In this document: positions 8,106 to 20,439 of the stretch, piece by piece
How positions within the stretch are numbered: position 1 is the stretch's first letter
Layout of the letters: each line of letters starts with the position of its first letter
Source of the DNA: a virus
Strand: one strand, 5' to 3'
Length of the DNA: 20,439 bases
Virus record (IMG/VR): IMGVR_UViG_3300013099_000113
Span: 1-20,439 of that record
Made by a program: the position numbers and the translations under genes
Notes under the pieces: generated by a model
Databases searched by the model: none
What the model was told of the DNA's origin: nothing
What the model saw: only the letters and a program-made list of their open reading frames with translations

Positions 8106-8140
8106 AAGAGTTGAGAGGGTAACTCCTCTCTTCTCTTATT
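8106..8140 (+). terminator. Hairpin after the capsid gene, likely partial terminator or attenuator
   Basis: AAGAG-TT-GAGAGG-GTAACT-CCTCTC-TT-CTCTT. Eleven Watson-Crick pairs form around a symmetric TT/TT internal loop: 8106-8110 pairs with 8133-8137, and 8113-8118 pairs with 8125-8130. The 3' side runs into ATTTTAAT, a weak U tract. It begins 11 bases after the capsid stop. No promoter element is seen before the next gene at 8169, so that gene probably depends on read-through. RNA processing or mRNA 3'-end protection are alternatives. Confidence 0.6.
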
Positions 8141-8927: not shown

Positions 8928-8952
8928 CTAACTTAGTATTTTCACAATGAGT

Positions 8953-8984
8953 AAAAGGGGGTTTCGCAAGTTGTCCCCTTTTTT
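8953..8984 (+). terminator. Rho-independent terminator between head and tail modules
   Basis: AAAAGGGG (8953-8960) pairs perfectly with CCCCTTTT (8975-8982) around a 14-base loop, with a further G-T pair possible at 8961/8974, and continues into a run of six T. It lies 25 bases after the TAA of the preceding gene and only three bases before the next promoter element. Confidence 0.85.
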
Positions 8985-8987
8985 CAT

Positions 8988-8997
8988 TATCTTTGCA
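8988..8997 (+). promoter_or_regulatory. Bacteroidota-type promoter -7 element before the tail module
   Basis: The second exact copy of TATCTTTGCA, 21 bases before the ATG at 9018 and immediately downstream of the terminator T-run. Because the terminator stem and loop occupy the region where a -33 box would lie, that part does double duty. The loop contains TTG at 8971-8973 but no clean TTTG at standard spacing. Confidence 0.72.
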
Positions 8998-10640: not shown

Positions 10641-13600
10641 ATGAAGTTACAAAATACTTTTCTACAAGGAAGGATGGATTCTGATACAGACGAACGTTTA
10701 CTTCAAAAGGGGGTATATAGAGATGCCCTTAATATACAAGTAGCTAACTCAGAAGGCTCTAATGTGGGTGCAGTAGAAAATATCATAGGTAACACTAAGG
10801 TTTCAAACTTCAACCTTACAAATGCTAAATGCATTGGAGAACTAGAGGATGGGAAGAGTAGAAAAATATATTATTTTATAACATCTGATGAAAAGGATTT
10901 AGTAATAGAGTTTGATGAAGAGACTTTAACTACAACTAGAGTATTAGAATCTACTATTGCAGGTAATAACATTTTAAAATTCAATCCCGATTACTTAATA
11001 ACAGGAGTTAATAAAATAATAAATGGAGATTCAAGTAAGGACTTATTAGCTTGGACAGATGACGTTAATGCACCTAGAATACTTAATATAGCTAGGGCTA
11101 AGTCTTATCCAATAGATGACTTTGTAGAAGATGATATTTCAGTTATAAAAAAGCCACCAAGATATGCACCCACTACCGTATTACAACAAACTGTAAACTT
11201 AGAAAACTACTTAGATGATAAATTTATAAGCTATGCGTATAGATATAAATACTTAGATGGGGAATATAGTGCTCTATCCTCATTCTCAAATTATCAGTTC
11301 TTTCCTAAAGCTTTTAAATTAGATTATCAGACAGCAGAGAATACAGGAATGGAAAATGTATTTAATCAAGTATTAATTGAATTTAATACTGGCAGTGAGA
11401 GAGTTACAGATATTCAGTTAGTGTTTAGAGAATCAAATAGCACATCAGTTTACATCATTGAAACATTAAATAAAGAAGATGAAATATTAGCAGATGATGA
11501 TGATGTAACTCACTTATTTAATAATAGTAAAAAATATGAAATATTACCTGTTGATGAACTATCTAGGCTTTACGACAATGTTCCTAGATTATCAAAGACT
11601 CAAGAGTTCATAGGTAATAGGCTAGCTTATGGTAACTACTTAGAAGGATATAATATGATTGATAGCTCAACTAATAAGGTTGCTATGAACTATGATTTAA
11701 ACTTAGTGAGTGCTGATACTGCCTATAAATCTTTAAATTATGTGTTATTTCCTGAAAATGCAGACTTTGATAAATGGAGAATGGATTTCTTTGGACAGAG
11801 TTTAAATGAAGGCGATGTATTAAGCTTCAATATTGTTTTAACAAGAACAAATGCAAGTTTTATATATAATTATTCTTATATTTTAATTCAAGACTTTACA
11901 GATATAGCGGAGCTATCAGCAGATTCAGACTTTATTTACTTCGTTGAGGAAGTAATGTCTTCAATATTTGAACAAAATGTACAAGATGTAGTACCTGATG
12001 ATACAATATCCACAGCGTACACAGGGTTTAAAATATTAAATGAAATTGCTTGGGAATTAACAATATTAGCTCCGTATATAACTTATACAATCGATGATGG
12101 AATTAGTCCCGCATATACTGAAGACCATTTTTGGGACTTCGTAGATGAAGCGATAGATATATCTACTAGTGAGGGAAGAGGAAATAAAAGCTTAAAGAGT
12201 AATAGAAGCTATGAAGTTGGAATGGTTTATTTAGATGGATATAATAGGTCTTCAACGGTAATTACTGATATTACAAATACAATAACAGTCCCTCATAACC
12301 TATCAACTTCTCAAAATAAAATTCAAATAGATATAAATCATAACCCTCCTGAGTGGGCAGATAGATATAAATTTGTAATAAAGCAAAATAAAGGGGAATA
12401 TGAAACAATGTATATTAATATATTCCATGAAGATGGGCTGTTTAGATGGGTTAAGTTAGAGGGAAGTAATAGAAATAAAGTAAAAGAAGGGGATGTATTA
12501 ATAGTAAAATCAGACTTGTCAGGAGTAGTTGATAACTTAGTAAAAGTTAAAGTACTAGAAGTAACTCAGAAAGAGGAAGATTTTATAAATGGGAATATTG
12601 ACCAAAATGGAAATGATGTAATAGAGCCTCCCGGACTATATATGAAGATTAAACCGTTGGATTTCTTAATGGATGAATCAGATGCGAATGCCCAAGAGCT
12701 CCATGATAATGGTACTCCATTAGCAGCAAGTGGGCATGGAATAATAAATATAGGAAACACAGATAACCTAGATATAAATTCATTAGGTGGATACCTAGAC
12801 CCTGTAACTGAAAGGTTTATAAACTATGATATGAACATAGGAACTAGAGTTCATATGGTATTTAAAGTAAAAAATAGATTAACTTCAAATCAGTCATTAG
12901 TTACATATGATAGACAATTTATTGTCCAAGAAAACTACTCGAACTTTGAAGATTGGTATAATGCTGAAGTTGTAACATTAGGTGTAGTGTTTGAAGCAGA
13001 GGTAAAGCAAACAACCAATAGATTTAATTGGGGAGGAATTAATGATTTAACCATGAGGTTAAAGACTGAGAACGTTTATGCTGCAATAGATGGTACTATA
13101 TCTATAGTATATAATACCGGAGATTTAATATTTGAAACTCAAGCTGATGATATAGAGGATGAAGTATTTTATGAAACAGGATTAACATTTGACATAGTAG
13201 ATAACTTACATCAAGGTAACATTCAAAACCAAACAATAGACCCTTTACCTGCAACGTGCCTGTTAGATGCGTTTAACTGCTATGTAATGGGGAATGGAGC
13301 AGAGAGTTACAAGTATCAAGATTCACTTAATGTAGCAAGCTTACAAATGAACTTGCGACCAAACGCTGTTGATTTAAATGGGTTTAAAGAGATTAGGAGA
13401 TACGCAGATATAACTTATAGCGAACCATATAATGAAAACAATAGTATAAATGGGTTAAATGAGTTTAATTTGTCTAGGGCTAACTATAAAGAAGATATTG
13501 AAAAGAAATATGGCTCAATACAGAAAATGTACTCTAGGGATACCGATATTGTTATATTCCAAGAAGATAAGATTAGTAAAGTACTATTTGGTAAAGACTT

Positions 13601-14648
13601 ATTATATAATGCAGACAGCACTACGAATCTATCTATAGTAGACGATGTATTAGGGCAAGCAGTATCATATGCAGGAGAATACGGAATAAGTAGAAATCCT
13701 GAAAGCTTTGCATTCAATGGTAATAATTTATACTTCACTGATGTAAAGAGGGGAGCTGTGTTGAGGCTTGGAGCTAACGGTTTAGTTGAAATATCAGCAA
13801 ATGGAATGAGGACTTGGTTCAAGGATAGATTTAAAGAAAACTTAAATGGAGTAAAAATGGGGGCATTTGACCCTTATTATGACCAATATGTTTTACATTT
13901 AAACAATGAAGATGTAGATTTTGATAGCTACACTTTAACGTTTGATGAAAAGGTAAAAGGATGGACATCTTTTTATTCATTCTCTCCTGAGCAAATGACA
14001 GGGGTTAATAATAAATTCTTTACAGTAAAGGAAGGTGAAATATATCAACATCATGTTGGAGACAGAAACGTATTTTACGAACAGCAATACCCATCAGGTA
14101 TAAAGTTTGTATTAAATGATTCCCCATCAGACATTAAAGCGTTTAAGACTTTAAATATAGAAGGAACTCACGCTTGGGATTGCTCAATACTTACTAATTT
14201 TACAAATGGACATATACACGGTAAGGAGTTTATAAATAAAGAAAACGAATGGTATACTCATTTAAGACGTTCAGAAAACTCTCAAGACTATAGTACATTG
14301 GCTACTCAAGGGGTTGGTAGATTAGAGTCTATTGATTCTTTAACATTAACTTTTTCAAATAATGTAAGTAAATCGCTATCTAATGGAGATAAGCTTTATG
14401 TACTAAACGAAACAAATGGAGTGTTATCTTTCTTAGGGAATGTGGATTTACATTCTGATACAACTATAACATTAGATTTATTAACAAATACTCCTTCAGT
14501 TAATGAGTTTATAGTATTTACTAAAGATAGTAGAATGGAAGGGTCTATGATACGGGGGTATTATATGGAAATAGATATGACAATTGACTCTCCTGAGATG
14601 GTTGAACTATATGGGGTTAACTCAGAGGTGTTCAAGAGTTTTGGGTAA
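10641..14648 (+). CDS. Tail stabilisation/muzzle protein (P22 gp10-like)
   Basis: 1335 residues, probably the large protein that forms the distal tube or nozzle of the short tail. The N-terminus has LQGRMDSDTDERLLQKGVYR (8-27) followed by DALNIQVANS. This GxMxxDxDxRLLxxGxYRDAxN signature is typical of tail stabilisation proteins in crAss-like phages and distant P22 gp10 relatives. The body is beta-rich with repeated tyrosine/aspartate strands, in keeping with propeller or stacked beta domains. A later conserved-looking part reads YGISRNPESFAFNGNNLYFT (about 1014-1033) and GMRTWFKDRF (1055-1064), again a blade-like pattern. There is no signal peptide, coiled coil or enzyme motif. It is co-transcribed with the two ring genes and ends in TAA seven bases before the third promoter element. 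A receptor-binding role of some domains cannot be excluded. Confidence 0.72.
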   Translation: MKLQNTFLQGRMDSDTDERLLQKGVYRDALNIQVANSEGSNVGAVENIIGNTKVSNFNLTNAKCIGELEDGKSRKIYYFITSDEKDLVIEFDEETLTTTRVLESTIAGNNILKFNPDYLITGVNKIINGDSSKDLLAWTDDVNAPRILNIARAKSYPIDDFVEDDISVIKKPPRYAPTTVLQQTVNLENYLDDKFISYAYRYKYLDGEYSALSSFSNYQFFPKAFKLDYQTAENTGMENVFNQVLIEFNTGSERVTDIQLVFRESNSTSVYIIETLNKEDEILADDDDVTHLFNNSKKYEILPVDELSRLYDNVPRLSKTQEFIGNRLAYGNYLEGYNMIDSSTNKVAMNYDLNLVSADTAYKSLNYVLFPENADFDKWRMDFFGQSLNEGDVLSFNIVLTRTNASFIYNYSYILIQDFTDIAELSADSDFIYFVEEVMSSIFEQNVQDVVPDDTISTAYTGFKILNEIAWELTILAPYITYTIDDGISPAYTEDHFWDFVDEAIDISTSEGRGNKSLKSNRSYEVGMVYLDGYNRSSTVITDITNTITVPHNLSTSQNKIQIDINHNPPEWADRYKFVIKQNKGEYETMYINIFHEDGLFRWVKLEGSNRNKVKEGDVLIVKSDLSGVVDNLVKVKVLEVTQKEEDFINGNIDQNGNDVIEPPGLYMKIKPLDFLMDESDANAQELHDNGTPLAASGHGIINIGNTDNLDINSLGGYLDPVTERFINYDMNIGTRVHMVFKVKNRLTSNQSLVTYDRQFIVQENYSNFEDWYNAEVVTLGVVFEAEVKQTTNRFNWGGINDLTMRLKTENVYAAIDGTISIVYNTGDLIFETQADDIEDEVFYETGLTFDIVDNLHQGNIQNQTIDPLPATCLLDAFNCYVMGNGAESYKYQDSLNVASLQMNLRPNAVDLNGFKEIRRYADITYSEPYNENNSINGLNEFNLSRANYKEDIEKKYGSIQKMYSRDTDIVIFQEDKISKVLFGKDLLYNADSTTNLSIVDDVLGQAVSYAGEYGISRNPESFAFNGNNLYFTDVKRGAVLRLGANGLVEISANGMRTWFKDRFKENLNGVKMGAFDPYYDQYVLHLNNEDVDFDSYTLTFDEKVKGWTSFYSFSPEQMTGVNNKFFTVKEGEIYQHHVGDRNVFYEQQYPSGIKFVLNDSPSDIKAFKTLNIEGTHAWDCSILTNFTNGHIHGKEFINKENEWYTHLRRSENSQDYSTLATQGVGRLESIDSLTLTFSNNVSKSLSNGDKLYVLNETNGVLSFLGNVDLHSDTTITLDLLTNTPSVNEFIVFTKDSRMEGSMIRGYYMEIDMTIDSPEMVELYGVNSEVFKSFG

Positions 14649-14654
14649 ATTTCG

Positions 14655-14664
14655 TATCTTTGCA
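14655..14664 (+). promoter_or_regulatory. Bacteroidota-type promoter -7 element before the internal-protein module
   Basis: The third exact copy of TATCTTTGCA, 35 bases before the ATG at 14699. TTTG occurs at 14640-14643, closer than the usual -33 spacing. No terminator is visible between it and the stop of the 1335-residue gene, so it would add transcription to read-through from upstream. Confidence 0.7.
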
Positions 14665-14698
14665 ACAATGATTAAAATAACTTAAAAAATAAAATACT

Positions 14699-15280
14699 AT
14701 GTCAGGACTTGGAATGGGAAGTATTGGGGGATTCGGTTCAGTAGGAATGGGGATGCTCTCAAGTGTTATGAAAATGAGCGAAGGAATGAGAATGCAAGGA
14801 AAAGGTCAATCCGGAATAGATAACTTTCAATGGAACGATTTAGTAAACCCCTTTACTAATGCTCAAATAAGTAGACAGGGTGGAGATTTAAGAAGTGAGC
14901 AAGCGAATATGGGATTCGGAACAATAGTTGATGCATTTAGAGGTGGAGGCACAAGAGGAATAATGGGTGGACTCGGTCAAGCGTATAACCAAAGAAATAT
15001 GGTTAATAGAGAAGTTGGAGCTAACTTTGATGCTCAACAAAGAAATATTGATATGTCAACCGCCCAATATGGCACTAAGATACAAGCAATGAAAGAAAAG
15101 CGACAGACTGACGAATTAGCAGGATTTGGAGCACTACTCAATCAAGGAATGGGGATGAAATATCAAGGATTTGCAGATGCAGCTAACTCTTTTGGGGCAT
15201 TGGGTCAGATGGGAGAAAGAGGAGATGAAACCGGAGGATGGGGAAATTACTTTGGTCAAGAATCACAAAGATATAATTAA
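14699..15280 (+). CDS. Small Gly/Met-rich protein, probable internal (ejected) virion protein
   Basis: 193 residues, about 38 of them Gly and 16 Met. The first 30 residues are a glycine- and methionine-studded hydrophobic stretch (GSIGGFGSVGMGMLSSVM, 7-24), without a signal-peptidase site or positive N-terminus. This suggests a flexible, membrane-active or tightly packed segment rather than an exported protein. The C-terminal half alternates Gln/Ala helices (ANFDAQQRNIDMSTAQYG) with Gly-rich parts (LLNQGMGMKYQGFADAANS). Size and place, first of three genes after the tail-tube genes, match T7 gp14 (196 residues), the pore-forming ejected core protein. This is analogy of position and composition, not sequence similarity. 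It follows the 14655 promoter and precedes the 546-residue gene by 18 bases. It could instead be a small tail or collar component. Confidence 0.5.
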   Translation: MSGLGMGSIGGFGSVGMGMLSSVMKMSEGMRMQGKGQSGIDNFQWNDLVNPFTNAQISRQGGDLRSEQANMGFGTIVDAFRGGGTRGIMGGLGQAYNQRNMVNREVGANFDAQQRNIDMSTAQYGTKIQAMKEKRQTDELAGFGALLNQGMGMKYQGFADAANSFGALGQMGERGDETGGWGNYFGQESQRYN

Positions 15281-15298
15281 GAATTTAACTAAGCAATA

Positions 15299-16939
15299 AT
15301 GGCAAAAGTATCAGGAGCATCAGCATATCAACAGTTAAGACCAATCAACGATGGGATGTCTCAAGCTCAACAATATTGGGGTAAACTAAAAGCAGGACAA
15401 GATGAGGCAGAGCTTCAAAGAGCACATCAAAGAGACCTCGCTGAAGGAAAGATTAGAGCCACTAAAGATGCTGCTGCAAAGGTAGCATTTGATGAGAGAT
15501 ATGGAATTACTCCTGAAGATACATATCTACAAGAAAGTGAGTTTGGCAACTTAAACGATGCATATAGTCAAGAAATGTCATTACATAGAGATAACTTATA
15601 TACTCAACAAGAAAAGTTAAAATCAAACCCCAACGATGAAGAAGCTAAGATAGCTTTCAATAAGAGTAAAAACTCTGTTAAGAACTTACAAGAGCTTAAT
15701 ACGTCAATGGTTAAGATAGGGGAAGACTTATTACAGAAAGAATTAAATGGAAAGTTAAGTGGAGTAGATAAAGACCGTTGGAGAGAAATTAAAGTTTCAC
15801 ACGAAAATGGAAAATATAAGGTAAAACTTGATGAAAATGGTGAGAGCGTATATATGTTCTATAATGAAACAGATGATGGTGGGTATGAGTTAGGAAATGT
15901 TGTAAATAGAAGAGAGTTGCTAGGTGGAGAGGTATATGATGAAATTGATATTGAACAGAGAGCCACAGACATAGCGACTGAGTTAGGTAGAGAAGTAATT
16001 GATACAGCTACCGGAGGTAAAATTGTAACATATGATGAATGGGATGAAGCAAAGCAGGGAAAAGCCTTAGACGACTTATTAAATGTATATTTAAATAATG
16101 ACAGCATTGTAGCTGATGTACTGCATCAATTAGACCCAACTAGCATGCAACGAACTAAATTTGATATAGCACAAAAAGATAAGGTTAGAGACTTCTTAAC
16201 TGAGGCTGTCAAAGACAAATATGGTAGAGAAAAGAAAATAAAATCAGGAGGTAACAGCTATAGTTGGACTAGAAATAAAGATGAACAAAGTGCTACTTGG
16301 TTATTTGATATAACTAATAGAGTATATGCCGGAGAAGAAGAGGCTTTTGGGTCATTAAAAAACATTAAACAAACATCTCAACCTGAAGGGTCAGACACAG
16401 CAAAAACTAGAGTTTCAAGTGAGGTTGTAATTGTTGATGGTAATTTAATTGTAATGGATAACGTAGGGAATAAAATGTTAACTGTGAGATTGGATGGTGG
16501 AGAAGCCTCTAAAATGCAAATAGCAAACTTCATCAAGGGTGGAGCTAATCCTGATAAAGTCTTAGCAACATATGAGTTAGGTAGACAAACTACAGGTGGT
16601 AAATTTGAAGTAGGGGATAAAGCTAAATCTTCAACCATGAAAGAGTCTCCCGATATTGATACAACTAAGATAGATGATTTACCAACAGACTCCGATAAAG
16701 CTAAAAACTTTTTAAAAGGAGAATATACTGATGATGGATTTAAATTCAGTACTACGGACAAGTGGTTTGAGGATAATGAAGTTGTAATAACAGCAGAAAG
16801 TGGAAATAAAAAAATGTTCAAGCTTACAGATAAAGAAGGAATTAAAAAGTTCTTAGAAGATAATTCTCCAACTAAGAAAACTTATACTAAAAATAAAAAA
16901 TCTAATAATAAAAAGAAATCTACACCAATAAGTAACTAA
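15299..16939 (+). CDS. Probable internal (cargo) virion protein
   Basis: 546 residues, not recognised as a characterised family. Residues about 1-130 are helical and Gln/Ala/Glu/Lys-rich (MSQAQQYWGKLKAGQDEAEL, HQRDLAEGKIRATKDAAAKV), likely coiled coil. The middle mixes beta strands (YKVKLDENGESVYMFYNE; VVIVDGNLIVMDNVGNKML) with helices. The C-terminus has a compact repeat-free segment (KFSTTDKWFEDNEVVITA) and a strongly basic tail (KKTYTKNKKSNNKKK, about 527-541) that could contact packaged DNA. It is the second gene of the set, between the Gly/Met-rich protein and the giant protein, which start 600 bases upstream and one base downstream of its ends. By position it resembles T7 gp15 or the cargo proteins of crAss-like virions (inference). 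It has no signal peptide or enzyme motif. Confidence 0.48.
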   Translation: MAKVSGASAYQQLRPINDGMSQAQQYWGKLKAGQDEAELQRAHQRDLAEGKIRATKDAAAKVAFDERYGITPEDTYLQESEFGNLNDAYSQEMSLHRDNLYTQQEKLKSNPNDEEAKIAFNKSKNSVKNLQELNTSMVKIGEDLLQKELNGKLSGVDKDRWREIKVSHENGKYKVKLDENGESVYMFYNETDDGGYELGNVVNRRELLGGEVYDEIDIEQRATDIATELGREVIDTATGGKIVTYDEWDEAKQGKALDDLLNVYLNNDSIVADVLHQLDPTSMQRTKFDIAQKDKVRDFLTEAVKDKYGREKKIKSGGNSYSWTRNKDEQSATWLFDITNRVYAGEEEAFGSLKNIKQTSQPEGSDTAKTRVSSEVVIVDGNLIVMDNVGNKMLTVRLDGGEASKMQIANFIKGGANPDKVLATYELGRQTTGGKFEVGDKAKSSTMKESPDIDTTKIDDLPTDSDKAKNFLKGEYTDDGFKFSTTDKWFEDNEVVITAESGNKKMFKLTDKEGIKKFLEDNSPTKKTYTKNKKSNNKKKSTPISN

Positions 16940-16940
16940 T

Positions 16941-19900
16941 ATGGATGAAGAAAAAGCATTAGAGCTATATAACTTTTTCAATAAAGAAGGTTATGATTTA
17001 GGAGATATTGATAATTTTAAATCAGCCTTATCAGATGAAGTAAAAGGTAAAGAGTTGCATACTTTCTTTAACGCTGAAGGATATGATGTAGGAGATATTA
17101 AAAACTTTAACTTAAAAAAAAAAGACGATGGAGAACTTACTTCAACTCGTCAAGAATCGGATTTACCTATACAGGAAGAGACTACAAAGTTTCCTTTGGT
17201 TACAGAAGAGAAAGTAGGGGAGATAAAACTTAGTGATAAAGAACTAGGTAAGGAAGTGAATGGAGAAGATGGGATACCTGAGCAAACCCGTAGAGAGCAA
17301 GAAGCTAAAGAGTACTTTACAAACTTACGTGAAGAGTCAATCAATGAACCCGTAGCTGAAACATATAATAAATACAAGAAGTTAGGGGTTCTTGAAGAAG
17401 ATATTATTTCTAAAATAAAAGATGAAAAAGGAATAGCACCACAACAGATTAACTTTATTAAAGACTTACCTGATGAAAAGCGACAAGCCCTTTTTGAATA
17501 TTCATTAAATAGAGCAGAAAACTTAAGCAAAGAGACCATGAACATTATGGCTCTTAATTCAACACTTGAAGAACAATATAAAAACTTAACAAAGGCTCAC
17601 CTACAGTATGAAAGAATATATAAAAATGCTGAAGAAAAAGGAACTACCCCTAACATTACTGAGAAGTTTTATACCGATTGGAAAGCAGTAATTGATGAAG
17701 CAGAGTCTATTGAGAAAAATGTTAACTCCAACAATAAAAAAATAGAAGATAATTCTGAAGACTTGAGTACGTTTGACGATGAATTAGATTTATTCAAACG
17801 AACTTATGATTCTTCAAAGAACTTTTGGGGGAAAGCTAGATGGGCAGCAACAGAGCACACAGTAGGGTTTGAACAAAAAAGAAGTAAGGCATGGCTATCA
17901 CTTTTAATGTCAGTTAGTGCGGGTAAAAATATATTCGATAAGGAGCAATATAAAAAGGAGAGAGAGCAATATGTAGCAGAGTGGGTTGGAAATGAAGATT
18001 ACAATAAAGATGCGCTTAAATATGTTAGAGGTCAATCTGAGGGGTTAAGAAAAGATTTAAAAATAGCTGATATAAATTCCACATCAGACTTTGGGGAGTG
18101 GGCATCTGAGCAAATCGCAAAACAGTTAGGGATTATAGCTGTAATATCTGCAACCGGAGGCACTACTGGTTCAAGTATGATAGGTGTTGGAACAGCAGGG
18201 ACTAAGGAGTTGGAGATGAAGATTGAAAATGAGACTAAAAAGGTCAAATATACACCAACAGAAATATCCTTAGCTTCAATAGGGTATGGGATTACTGAAG
18301 CAGGGTTTGAAATGCTAGGTACAGCAGTTATTTTAAAGCGAGGTAAAAGAGCATATAGGTCAATCTTAAAGGATGGAACAAAAGAAACCTTTACAAAAGG
18401 AGTTGGTAAGTTTGTAAAAGGAAACTTTACAGCAACAACTCTTGAATCAACAACTGAAGGATTTACAAGTTATTTTCAAAACGCAATCGATAAATTTGGA
18501 TTGGGTCATAAGGATGTGAGCTTGTATAGAGGGATGGGAGACGCAATGGCTTCCGGTGGGTTCATGGGGTCTGCCATGCATGCATCACCAATTATTACAG
18601 GAAACCTACTTAAACCTTTTTCAGAAAGAAAGAATAGAGAACATGTAGCTACTAATTTAGAGAAGATTAAAATATTTAAAGAGCAACTTGAAAATGATAA
18701 CTCTACTGAAATTGAAAAAATATTAAATAAAGGAATTGCTAAACTTGAAGAGGAAAATAAAAAGATACTTGAATCTGAAATTGCTAAGGTAGATAGTATG
18801 GAAGAGGGTGATGTAAAGGAGCTTATTAATGTCGATGAAAAACTAGAGCAAAGGGAAGCAATTAAATCTGAGATTGACAGAAATAAAGAAATGTCAGATG
18901 AAATGAAAGAAGATGTCTCTAAAGAGAATGATAATATTATTTCAGAACTATATACTAGAAAGCAAACTATCCTTAATAAATATAAAAATAAAGAAGGTAA
19001 AGTATTAAGTATTGTAGATACACCTGTGACTCTTACTAAGCAAGGTGGAAGTGAAGTTGCTCCGGTTAAGGGAGAGGCGTACCTTGATGGTAAAACATTA
19101 GTTATAGAGGACAGTGAAGGTAATATATATGAGGTAGGAAACATAGATGAGATTGGATTTAGAGATTTAGAGGAGATGGGAATATCTCAAGATAAGTCTA
19201 GGGTATCCACTAAAGGGGGAGATGTAACACTGGATGGAGAAATAGTAGTTGCAACAGGTAAGCATACCACTAAACCAAATAAGGAAGGAAAGTTCCCTAA
19301 AAACACTAGAGTGGAAGTAACCAATAAGCAAGGAGATAAAACATTTACATTAAGGGGGCAGACTGCTCAAGATATGATTTATCAATTAACATTAAAAGAA
19401 AAAGAAGATGGCAATTTACAAAGTGAAGAAAAAAAAGACACCAAAGAGAAAAGCGACAACGGTAATAAAGAACCCGTACAACAAGTCAAAGAGAAAGAGA
19501 GTTACAAAGGTGAGCAAGAAATAGTAAAGGAAAAGCCACCTAAAAAGGAGGGTATAGTTAAGAAAGTAAAGGCGTGGGCTGATAAGAAAAGTAAAGAGTT
19601 TGATAAAGCTCACGCTAAAGCTGAAGAAGAGTATAATAAATCTGAGCAAAAGAAGATAGATAAGAAAAAAGATAAGGATAACAGGGAGGATAATATAAAA
19701 AACCGAACAGACGCTCAAAAGAAAAGAGATACAAAAAAAGAAGAGAATAAAAAACGTAAAGCTGAATATAATAAAAAGAAAAAAGAAGAGGTAGAGGAAA
19801 TAATAGAAGTTATAAAAGAAACTCCAAAGAAAGAGAGAAAGATAAAAGAAAGTAAGAAGGTAAAGAAAGTAAAGAAAAGTATAATATCTAAAGCTAAGTT

Positions 19901-20439
19901 GTCTAATATAGAGAAAAAATTAATTGAAAAATTAAAAGGCTCAAGAGAGACAGTTAGTGAGTATATCGGAAGACTAATTGACGGTACAGCTAAAGTGCAT
20001 GTTAAACTTAAAGACCTTGTATCAAAAATTAATAAAAACATTAAAAGAGCATTATTAGGTATAATGATAATGTCTTCTGTAACAATTGGTGGAAAGGAAA
20101 TATCTAGCATTCCTGTAATAAATGATTATATAGAACAGAACATAAGCGATGATGTAGCGAATGTGGTTAAGATGGAGTATTCTGATATACTAGATGTAGC
20201 TCCAAATATAATAGATTATATGACAGGATTGGGCTCTTATGCTGAAACCGTATCAGATGTAAGTAATATTTTAGAAAAAGCTACACCTGAAACAATAGAG
20301 GTAGTAGAAGCTAAAGAAGAGGTTAAGGAAGAACATTTCTTAGAATCAGGAATAAATTTAGGCAAACCTGTAATGACAACTAAGAGTGGTGGAAAAGTAA
20401 GACCATATGTTATAGACTTAACCCATGAAGTATATATAG
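16941..20439 (+). CDS. Giant multidomain virion protein, N-terminal 1166 residues (runs off the window)
   Basis: Starts one base after the previous stop and stays open through 1166 codons to the edge. Order: two copies of a 30-residue repeat (9-26 and 39-56, sharing FFNxEGYDxGDIxNF); charged helices (57-380); a Gly/Ala-rich hydrophobic region (LGIIAVISATGGTTGSSMIG at 396-415 and 442-465, ESTTEGFTSYFQN 502-514, DAMASGGFMGSAM about 534-546); coiled coil (about 566-690); a beta domain (about 690-815); a Lys/Glu-rich stretch (819-980); and a short hydrophobic segment (ALLGIMIMSSVTIG, 1037-1050). The repeat and the amphipathic Gly-rich part recall giant internal proteins of Bacteroidota phages and, by place and size, T7 gp16 (1318 residues), which is ejected and spans the envelope. 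No peptidase, transglycosylase or polymerase motif is visible in this part; catalytic domains may lie beyond 20439. Function is inference. Confidence 0.55.
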   Translation, partial: MDEEKALELYNFFNKEGYDLGDIDNFKSALSDEVKGKELHTFFNAEGYDVGDIKNFNLKKKDDGELTSTRQESDLPIQEETTKFPLVTEEKVGEIKLSDKELGKEVNGEDGIPEQTRREQEAKEYFTNLREESINEPVAETYNKYKKLGVLEEDIISKIKDEKGIAPQQINFIKDLPDEKRQALFEYSLNRAENLSKETMNIMALNSTLEEQYKNLTKAHLQYERIYKNAEEKGTTPNITEKFYTDWKAVIDEAESIEKNVNSNNKKIEDNSEDLSTFDDELDLFKRTYDSSKNFWGKARWAATEHTVGFEQKRSKAWLSLLMSVSAGKNIFDKEQYKKEREQYVAEWVGNEDYNKDALKYVRGQSEGLRKDLKIADINSTSDFGEWASEQIAKQLGIIAVISATGGTTGSSMIGVGTAGTKELEMKIENETKKVKYTPTEISLASIGYGITEAGFEMLGTAVILKRGKRAYRSILKDGTKETFTKGVGKFVKGNFTATTLESTTEGFTSYFQNAIDKFGLGHKDVSLYRGMGDAMASGGFMGSAMHASPIITGNLLKPFSERKNREHVATNLEKIKIFKEQLENDNSTEIEKILNKGIAKLEEENKKILESEIAKVDSMEEGDVKELINVDEKLEQREAIKSEIDRNKEMSDEMKEDVSKENDNIISELYTRKQTILNKYKNKEGKVLSIVDTPVTLTKQGGSEVAPVKGEAYLDGKTLVIEDSEGNIYEVGNIDEIGFRDLEEMGISQDKSRVSTKGGDVTLDGEIVVATGKHTTKPNKEGKFPKNTRVEVTNKQGDKTFTLRGQTAQDMIYQLTLKEKEDGNLQSEEKKDTKEKSDNGNKEPVQQVKEKESYKGEQEIVKEKPPKKEGIVKKVKAWADKKSKEFDKAHAKAEEEYNKSEQKKIDKKKDKDNREDNIKNRTDAQKKRDTKKEENKKRKAEYNKKKKEEVEEIIEVIKETPKKERKIKESKKVKKVKKSIISKAKLSNIEKKLIEKLKGSRETVSEYIGRLIDGTAKVHVKLKDLVSKINKNIKRALLGIMIMSSVTIGGKEISSIPVINDYIEQNISDDVANVVKMEYSDILDVAPNIIDYMTGLGSYAETVSDVSNILEKATPETIEVVEAKEEVKEEHFLESGINLGKPVMTTKSGGKVRPYVIDLTHEVYI
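16965..17108 (+). repeat. Duplicated 30-residue N-terminal motif of the giant protein
   Basis: Residues 9-26 (LYNFFNKEGYDLGDIDNF) and 39-56 (LHTFFNAEGYDVGDIKNF) match at 13 of 18 positions, 90 bases apart. I recall motifs of the type LY-x-x-L-x-x-x-GYD-hydrophobic-G-x-x-x-x-F at the N-termini of very large proteins in other Bacteroidota phages, where they look like modular docking tags. That role is inference. Confidence 0.85.
17114..17123 (+). other. A10 tract, possible slippage site in the giant gene
   Basis: A run of ten A (codons TTA AAA AAA AAA GAC) directly after the second N-terminal repeat. Such runs can cause RNA polymerase or ribosome slippage. A shift in either direction meets a stop within about 110 bases (TAG at 17231-17233 in the -1 frame, TAG at 17215-17217 in the +1 frame). 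It would release a short product carrying only the two repeats. No stimulatory structure was identified. Confidence 0.4.

What the first reader, a model, noticed from the sequence alone, without database searches (positions are those of the whole stretch)
14655..20439. Candidate ejection-protein operon with its own promoter in a crAss-like/Bacteroidota podovirus
After the tail-tube genes comes a promoter element and three tightly spaced genes of rising size: 193 residues (20% Gly, Met-rich, hydrophobic N-terminus), 546 residues (coiled coil, basic tail), and more than 1166 residues (repeats, amphipathic Gly-rich region, coiled coil, Lys-rich region). The order and sizes parallel T7 gp14-gp15-gp16, the ejectosome that forms a channel through the cell envelope, yet I see no sequence resemblance. 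If real, this would be an independently built or highly diverged DNA-ejection machine.
Basis: partly seen in the sequence, partly recalled or inferred. Interest (0 to 1): 0.65.

Follow-up and report, generated by a model that had tools for sequence, protein, structure and literature searches.

The report
Phage DNA-injection gene trio, likely
Three adjacent genes in a short-tailed virus of Bacteroidota bacteria most likely encode the proteins it shoots into the host ahead of its DNA to build a tunnel through the cell envelope; the trio is conserved in dozens of related phages and is a diverged form of a known machine, but with an unusually large third part that seems to carry different extra domains in different phages.

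Summary
Directly after a crAss-type muzzle gene lie a TATCTTTGCA promoter-like element and three tightly packed genes: A (193 aa), B (546 aa) and C (over 1166 aa, cut by the contig end). The same order follows the muzzle in dozens of related contigs (A-B gap 39 nt or less in 46 of 46). In Cellulophaga phage phi18:3 all three homologues are annotated as virion proteins from MS/MS. Small-medium-large after the nozzle is the arrangement of T7 gp14-15-16 and other podovirus ejection proteins, so an ejection module is the best reading. 'Independently built' is not supported: ten relatives' A proteins match Pfam T7_gp14 end to end, one above the curated cut-off, although the window's own A does not. 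B and C show no detectable link to gp15, gp16 or crAss cargo proteins; the crAss C1, C2 and RNA-polymerase families and a lytic transglycosylase were not found. C keeps a ~520-aa core in about 40 loci while its length (mostly 1649-3694 aa in complete relatives) and C-terminal domains vary (LPD38, LPD23, ADP-ribosyltransferase, DUF3293), so it looks like a giant polyvalent protein delivered with the tunnel. Function is inferred, not shown.

The parts
10641..14648 (+). Muzzle/nozzle gene, 1335 aa, directly upstream of the trio; marks the gene-order position
   Evidence: Pfam crAss_MUZ 5e-18 and crAss_MUZ_C 4e-13; 37-39% identity to phi18:3, elemo and Calle structural proteins
14655..14664 (+). 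Promoter-like element TATCTTTGCA (Bacteroidota -7 type TAnnTTTG)
   Evidence: third of three identical + strand copies, all in gaps before genes; TAnnTTTG within 150 nt upstream of A in 22 of 63 relatives against 12% of random windows
14699..15280 (+). Gene A, 193 aa, gp14-like small ejection protein (proposed outer-membrane pore piece)
   Evidence: PHROG 13764 virion structural protein 1e-16; family matches Pfam T7_gp14 in relatives; phi18:3 homologue gp120 annotated from MS/MS
15299..16939 (+). Gene B, 546 aa, proposed tunnel protein in the gp15 position
   Evidence: conserved directly behind A (gap 39 nt or less, 46/46 loci); phi18:3 gp121 annotated from MS/MS
15362..16243 (+). Part of B modelled with fair confidence (residues 22-315): helical coil plus small beta subdomain
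   Evidence: AlphaFold2 block pLDDT mostly 70-96, whole model 62.6
16941..20439 (+). Gene C, more than 1166 aa (cut by contig end), giant third protein in the gp16 position
   Evidence: PHROG 22602 virion structural protein 2e-24; phi18:3 gp123 annotated from MS/MS; complete relatives mostly 1649-3694 aa
16947..17108 (+). Two tandem 24-residue repeats at the N-terminus of C (residues 3-26 and 33-56)
   Evidence: 16 of 24 identical; motif not found in the other C proteins examined
17391..18980 (+). Conserved core of C (residues 151-680)
   Evidence: core profile found in 42 ORFs including the window, E down to 1e-167
18126..18188 (+). Gly-rich hydrophobic segment in the core of C (residues 396-416), candidate membrane segment
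   Evidence: Kyte-Doolittle peak 1.36; core segments reach 1.6-1.7 in L039, L040, L050, L022, L003
19341..19970 (+). Lys-rich region of C (residues 801-1010, 27.6% Lys)
   Evidence: composition

Best explanation
A, B and C are the cargo (ejection) proteins of a short-tailed Bacteroidota phage. Proposed working, by analogy with T7 and Schitoviruses: the three proteins are packaged in the virion; after the muzzle opens, the small A protein leaves first and inserts in the outer membrane, B forms the periplasmic tunnel, and the giant C crosses to the inner membrane and cytoplasm, carrying variable C-terminal domains in with it, before the DNA follows. Shown by sequence: gene order, tight conserved spacing, a conserved core and variable tail of C, and an end-to-end but weak T7_gp14 profile match in part of the A family. 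Taken from a database record: virion location of the homologues in phi18:3. Inferred only: ejection, membrane insertion, tunnel formation and the order of exit. A is probably (not certainly) a diverged homologue of T7 gp14; B and C are assigned by position and size.
For: Trio after the muzzle in the loci that reach that far; A-B gap 39 nt or less in 46/46 and B-C gap 31 nt or less in 38/40. phi18:3 gp120, gp121 and gp123 annotated from MS/MS proteomics as virion proteins; Calle and phi38:1 homologues annotated structural. Gene order matches T7 12-(13)-14-15-16 and the published rule: small gene of about 200 aa, then 431-982 aa, then a larger ORF (PMC8954989). T7_gp14 profile: L021 A protein 31.8 bits, cut-off 27, residues 1-175 to model 1-181; in whole-record scans of 36 relatives 10 have exactly one match, at the A gene, while the window and crAss001 have none. 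Block-shuffled A sequences: 1 of 26 reached E 0.05 and the best was 18.7 bits, below seven of the real matches (21-31 bits). hhalign A family against gp14 family E 0.0008-0.003, the best of the pairs tried. Schitovirus DEV has the same kind of set with a 3398-aa third member (PMC10925440).
Against: The window's own A has no T7_gp14 match even at E 10, and a gp14 profile built here from nine T7-like proteins does not separate A from shuffles. hhalign probability for A-gp14 is only 11-24%. No sequence link of B to gp15 or of C to gp16; no PDB fold match for B. No lytic transglycosylase. The MS/MS statement is a record annotation for a distant relative (A about 28% identical), not this phage. No evidence of ejection.
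Confidence: 0.78

Rival explanations
1. The trio are crAss-type cargo proteins (C1, C2 and an RNA-polymerase-associated protein) that have diverged beyond recognition, so the module is crAss-like in origin rather than gp14-15-16-like.
For: Same position behind the muzzle; crAss001 gp45-gp46-gp47 are 842, 534 and 2341 aa, so B and C sizes fit gp46 and gp47; crAss001 gp45 and gp46 are themselves proposed channel proteins (PMC10172136).
Against: PF25725 (C1), PF25712 (C2) and the crAss001 polymerase gp50 are absent from the window and nine relatives tested, apart from one sub-threshold C1 match in Panino at another place; hhalign of A, B and C against gp45, gp46, gp47 finds nothing; A is 193 aa against 842 aa.
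Confidence: 0.12
2. The trio are other internal virion proteins (head core, scaffold remnants or host-takeover proteins) that are packaged but do not build a channel.
For: Virion location is the only annotated experimental fact; C relatives carry polyvalent effector-type domains; membrane segments are weak in the window's A and C.
Against: Gene order and size pattern follow ejection-protein sets in several podovirus groups (PMC8954989); partial T7_gp14 profile match of A.
Confidence: 0.08
3. They are tail-fibre or baseplate proteins.
For: They follow tail genes.
Against: No fibre or baseplate family match; predicted B is helical coil plus small beta parts and its only good structural matches in the viral library are five unnamed proteins of similar size; genes annotated as tail fibre or tail protein lie elsewhere in relatives.
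Confidence: 0.02

Closest known systems
T7 gp14-gp15-gp16 internal core / DNA ejectosome (Autographiviridae)
   Same: Gene order after the nozzle, own promoter in front (T7 phi13), size of the first protein, virion proteins in a relative, weak end-to-end T7_gp14 profile match of the A family
   Different: No detectable similarity of B to gp15 or C to gp16, no lytic transglycosylase domain, third protein larger in most complete relatives (1649-3694 aa against 1318 aa) with a variable tail
Schitoviridae ejection proteins (DEV gp73, gp72 and giant vRNAP gp71)
   Same: Three-protein set in an operon whose largest member is a giant multidomain protein
   Different: No RNA-polymerase similarity found in window C or in the 3694-aa elemo C
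Crassvirales cargo proteins C1 (gp45), C2 (gp46), RNAP-associated gp47 of crAss001
   Same: Position directly behind a homologous muzzle protein
   Different: Different protein families by Pfam and profile comparison; crAss polymerase absent
Polyvalent proteins (Iyer et al. 2017, PMC5512222)
   Same: C relatives carry LPD38, LPD23 or ART-PolyVal domains and lie among virion genes
   Different: Window C itself, truncated, has no recognised domain; here the giant protein is the third gene of an ejection-like trio
Pachyviridae, Pervagoviridae, Elemovirus (phi18:3, phi38:1/Calle, elemo phages)
   Same: Same trio, about 28-32% identity in A
   Different: Not named as ejection proteins in the records or papers read here

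Membership tests
T7-type ejection trio (gp14-gp15-gp16) | Small, medium and large co-directional genes in a tight operon next to the nozzle | tested here: met
T7-type ejection trio (gp14-gp15-gp16) | First protein in the gp14 size range (181-240 aa, PMC8954989) | tested here: met
   193 aa in the window; some relatives reach 326 aa
T7-type ejection trio (gp14-gp15-gp16) | First protein belongs to the T7_gp14 sequence family (PF24072) | tested here: inconclusive
   one relative above cut-off, others below it, window none; local-composition shuffles reach 18.7 bits
T7-type ejection trio (gp14-gp15-gp16) | Several membrane helices in gp14 | tested here: inconclusive
   only one moderate N-terminal segment; T7 gp14 itself scores little higher on the same scale
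T7-type ejection trio (gp14-gp15-gp16) | Second protein shares sequence or fold with gp15 | tested here: inconclusive
   no sequence match; no PDB match to a model of modest confidence
T7-type ejection trio (gp14-gp15-gp16) | Lytic transglycosylase domain in gp16 (absent from P22 and Sf6 homologues) | tested here: not met
   PF01464 finds T7 gp16 but nothing in the window or 11 relatives
T7-type ejection trio (gp14-gp15-gp16) | Packaged in the virion | tested here: inconclusive
   record annotation from MS/MS for all three phi18:3 homologues; not known for this phage
T7-type ejection trio (gp14-gp15-gp16) | Ejected into the host and forms a channel | not testable with these tools
   needs infection and bilayer experiments
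Crassvirales cargo set | crAss muzzle upstream | tested here: met
   PF25731 and PF25729
Crassvirales cargo set | Cargo protein 1 domain PF25725 | tested here: not met
   no match in window; crAss001 found as control
Crassvirales cargo set | Cargo protein 2 PF25712 | tested here: not met
   no match in window; crAss001 found as control
Crassvirales cargo set | Virion RNA polymerase (gp50 type) | tested here: not met
   absent from the window and complete relatives; the window itself is a fragment
Polyvalent proteins | Giant multidomain protein with effector-type domains, encoded among virion genes | tested here: inconclusive
   met for relatives L045, L033, L053; window C is truncated with no domain match
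Schitovirus ejection set with giant vRNAP | RNA polymerase domain in the giant protein | tested here: not met
   no polymerase chain matched by window C or elemo C in single-sequence searches

The most novel reading that the evidence does not exclude
In this group of Bacteroidota podoviruses the third ejection protein is a giant polyvalent protein: a conserved core that serves the trans-envelope machine is fused to a swappable C-terminal payload (ADP-ribosyltransferase, LPD and other domains), so the DNA-injection tunnel itself delivers host-takeover enzymes, without an RNA polymerase.
Probability: 0.4. Interest if true: 0.62.

Novelty: new variant of a known kind. Interest (0 to 1): 0.45.

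Why it matters
It would extend the tripartite ejectosome to a widespread group of marine and flavobacterial phages whose trio genes carry no functional name in the records read, tie crAss-type tails to a T7/gp14-like cargo set, and suggest that giant polyvalent proteins can be a structural part of the injection machine. It names which genes to test in cultured model phages (phi38:1 gp99-gp101; phi18:3 gp120, gp121, gp123).

Tried and rejected
Direct search for B in IMG/VR with the single window protein found no relative. The A1 and A9 alignments were too diverse for the viral scan. hhalign of A with shallow gp14 alignments gave nothing. A home-made nine-sequence gp14 profile did not beat shuffles, so the gp14 link rests on Pfam's broader model and was tempered by shuffle controls. 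A visual resemblance of A to the C-terminal 200 residues of crAss001 gp45 was not supported by hhalign (E 0.08 or worse). AlphaFold of A was poor (pLDDT 57, pTM 0.24), and its structure comparison reached a single chain and says nothing. Foldseek of B against PDB gave no match with E below 0.4; T7 gp15 was not among the rows listed. The B profile against PDB sequences gave only chance hits; the C core likewise. The ~135-aa ORF between muzzle and A in relatives looks like an acetyltransferase (T7 gp13 position), but PF00583 and PF13508 do not confirm it.

Full report
WHAT IS THERE. The window is a 20,439-base virus record with a packaging-to-tail gene block: terminase, portal, probable scaffold, major capsid protein, one unknown, two PHROG virion proteins in the ring-protein position, muzzle, then the trio. 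The muzzle (10641-14648) matches the Pfam crAss muzzle families and is 37-39% identical to structural proteins of Cellulophaga phages phi18:3, phi13:2 and Calle and of Flavobacterium elemo phages. After a 50-nt gap holding TATCTTTGCA come A (193 aa), B (546 aa) and C (at least 1166 aa), 18 nt and 1 nt apart.

PROMOTER. TATCTTTGCA fits the Bacteroidota -7 consensus TAnnTTTG (own knowledge). It occurs three times on the + strand, each time in the short gap before a gene (scaffold, first ring gene, A), though gaps make up 319 of 20,439 bases. TAnnTTTG lies within 150 nt upstream of A in 22 of 63 relatives, against 12% of random windows; in many others an extra ORF sits between muzzle and A, so a promoter would lie further up. 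Expression from it is not shown.

CONSERVATION. A scan of IMG/VR with a muzzle alignment returned 80 loci. Where the contig reaches past the muzzle and A was recognised, the order is muzzle, sometimes a ~135-aa ORF, A (about 170-330 aa), B (about 380-700 aa), then a giant ORF C. A second scan with A added 32 loci. A-B gaps are 39 nt or less in 46 of 46 loci, B-C gaps 31 nt or less in 38 of 40. C keeps a core of about 520 residues (window residues 151-680) in 42 ORFs; in complete relatives C is mostly 1649-3694 aa, shorter in a few.

VIRION EVIDENCE. The phi18:3 record annotates gp120, gp121 and gp123, the A, B and C homologues, from 'experimental MS/MS proteomics analysis'. phi38:1 and Calle homologues are called structural. 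This is second-hand and concerns relatives.

RELATION TO T7. The gene order parallels T7 12-13-14-15-16. A review states that ejection proteins are clustered as a ~200-aa gene, a 431-982-aa gene and a larger ORF, and that gp15 homologues in particular are mostly matched by size and synteny (PMC8954989). By sequence, 10 of 36 A-family members match Pfam T7_gp14 at E 0.05 or better, the best (L021) at 31.8 bits over the whole model, cut-off 27. Whole-record scans of 36 relatives gave ten with a single match, at the A gene. Controls: 25-residue block shuffles gave one hit in 26 at E 0.05 or better, best 18.7 bits, so matches below about 20 bits mean little and seven real ones stand above. The window's own A does not match, and a narrower home-made gp14 profile failed against shuffles. 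Profile-profile comparison gives E 0.0008-0.003 with low probability. I judge A a probable, unproven, distant gp14 homologue; descent is more likely than independent origin. B and C show nothing against gp15 and gp16, and no SLT domain was found; P22 and Sf6 also lack it in this protein (PMC8954989).

RELATION TO CRASSVIRUSES. [quoted passage not shown] C1, C2 and the crAss polymerase are absent from the window and the relatives tested, and profile comparisons are negative. So this is not the crAss cargo set, although the tail gate is homologous.

THE GIANT PROTEIN. Relatives' C proteins carry different domains: DUF3293 (elemo), LPD38, LPD23 and ART-PolyVal, weak GNAT. Such polyvalent proteins are thought to be packaged and delivered at infection (PMC5512222). 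In Schitovirus DEV the third ejection protein is a 3398-aa RNA polymerase (PMC10925440). No polymerase was found here. The window's C has an N-terminal 24-residue repeat, a Gly-rich hydrophobic segment in the core and a Lys-rich stretch, and no recognised domain.

STRUCTURES. A: pLDDT 57, helical, uninformative. B: residues 22-315 modelled fairly, helical coil plus beta subdomain; its five significant viral-library matches are unnamed proteins of 449-672 aa, and PDB gives none. No fibre or baseplate fold stood out.

VERDICT. An ejection-protein module of known general kind, diverged, with a giant variable third member. Ejection itself is inferred.

Noticed in passing
L136:5511-5921, L003:20408-20833, L005:17066-17464; absent from window 14649-14698: Many relatives have a 130-141 aa acetyltransferase-looking ORF between muzzle and A, the place of T7 gp13; hhalign to the T7 gp13 family E 0.016, but PF00583 and PF13508 do not match.
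   Followed up: partly
window 5637, 8988, 14655: Identical TATCTTTGCA elements in three gaps suggest separate promoters for scaffold/capsid, tail and trio transcription units.
   Followed up: yes
window 8113-8130 and 8946-8988: Two stable hairpins (shuffle z -4.3 and -4.2), the second GGGG...CCCC followed by a T-run directly before the 8988 promoter element: likely terminators.
   Followed up: partly
L053 C protein (residues 1576-1743), L033 C protein (1625-1790), L045 C protein (1883-2090): Different polyvalent domains (ADP-ribosyltransferase; LPD23 with a weak metallopeptidase match; LPD38) in the tails of giant proteins in the same gene position.
   Followed up: partly
L143 and L144 (contig IMGVR_UViG_3300046002_004363): One 99.6-kb contig holds two separate A-B-C trios about 65 kb apart; could be a joint assembly of two phages or a duplication.
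   Followed up: no
L007:27126-29889: Maribacter phage Panino has 15 annotated tRNA genes and a tmRNA next to its C gene.
   Followed up: no
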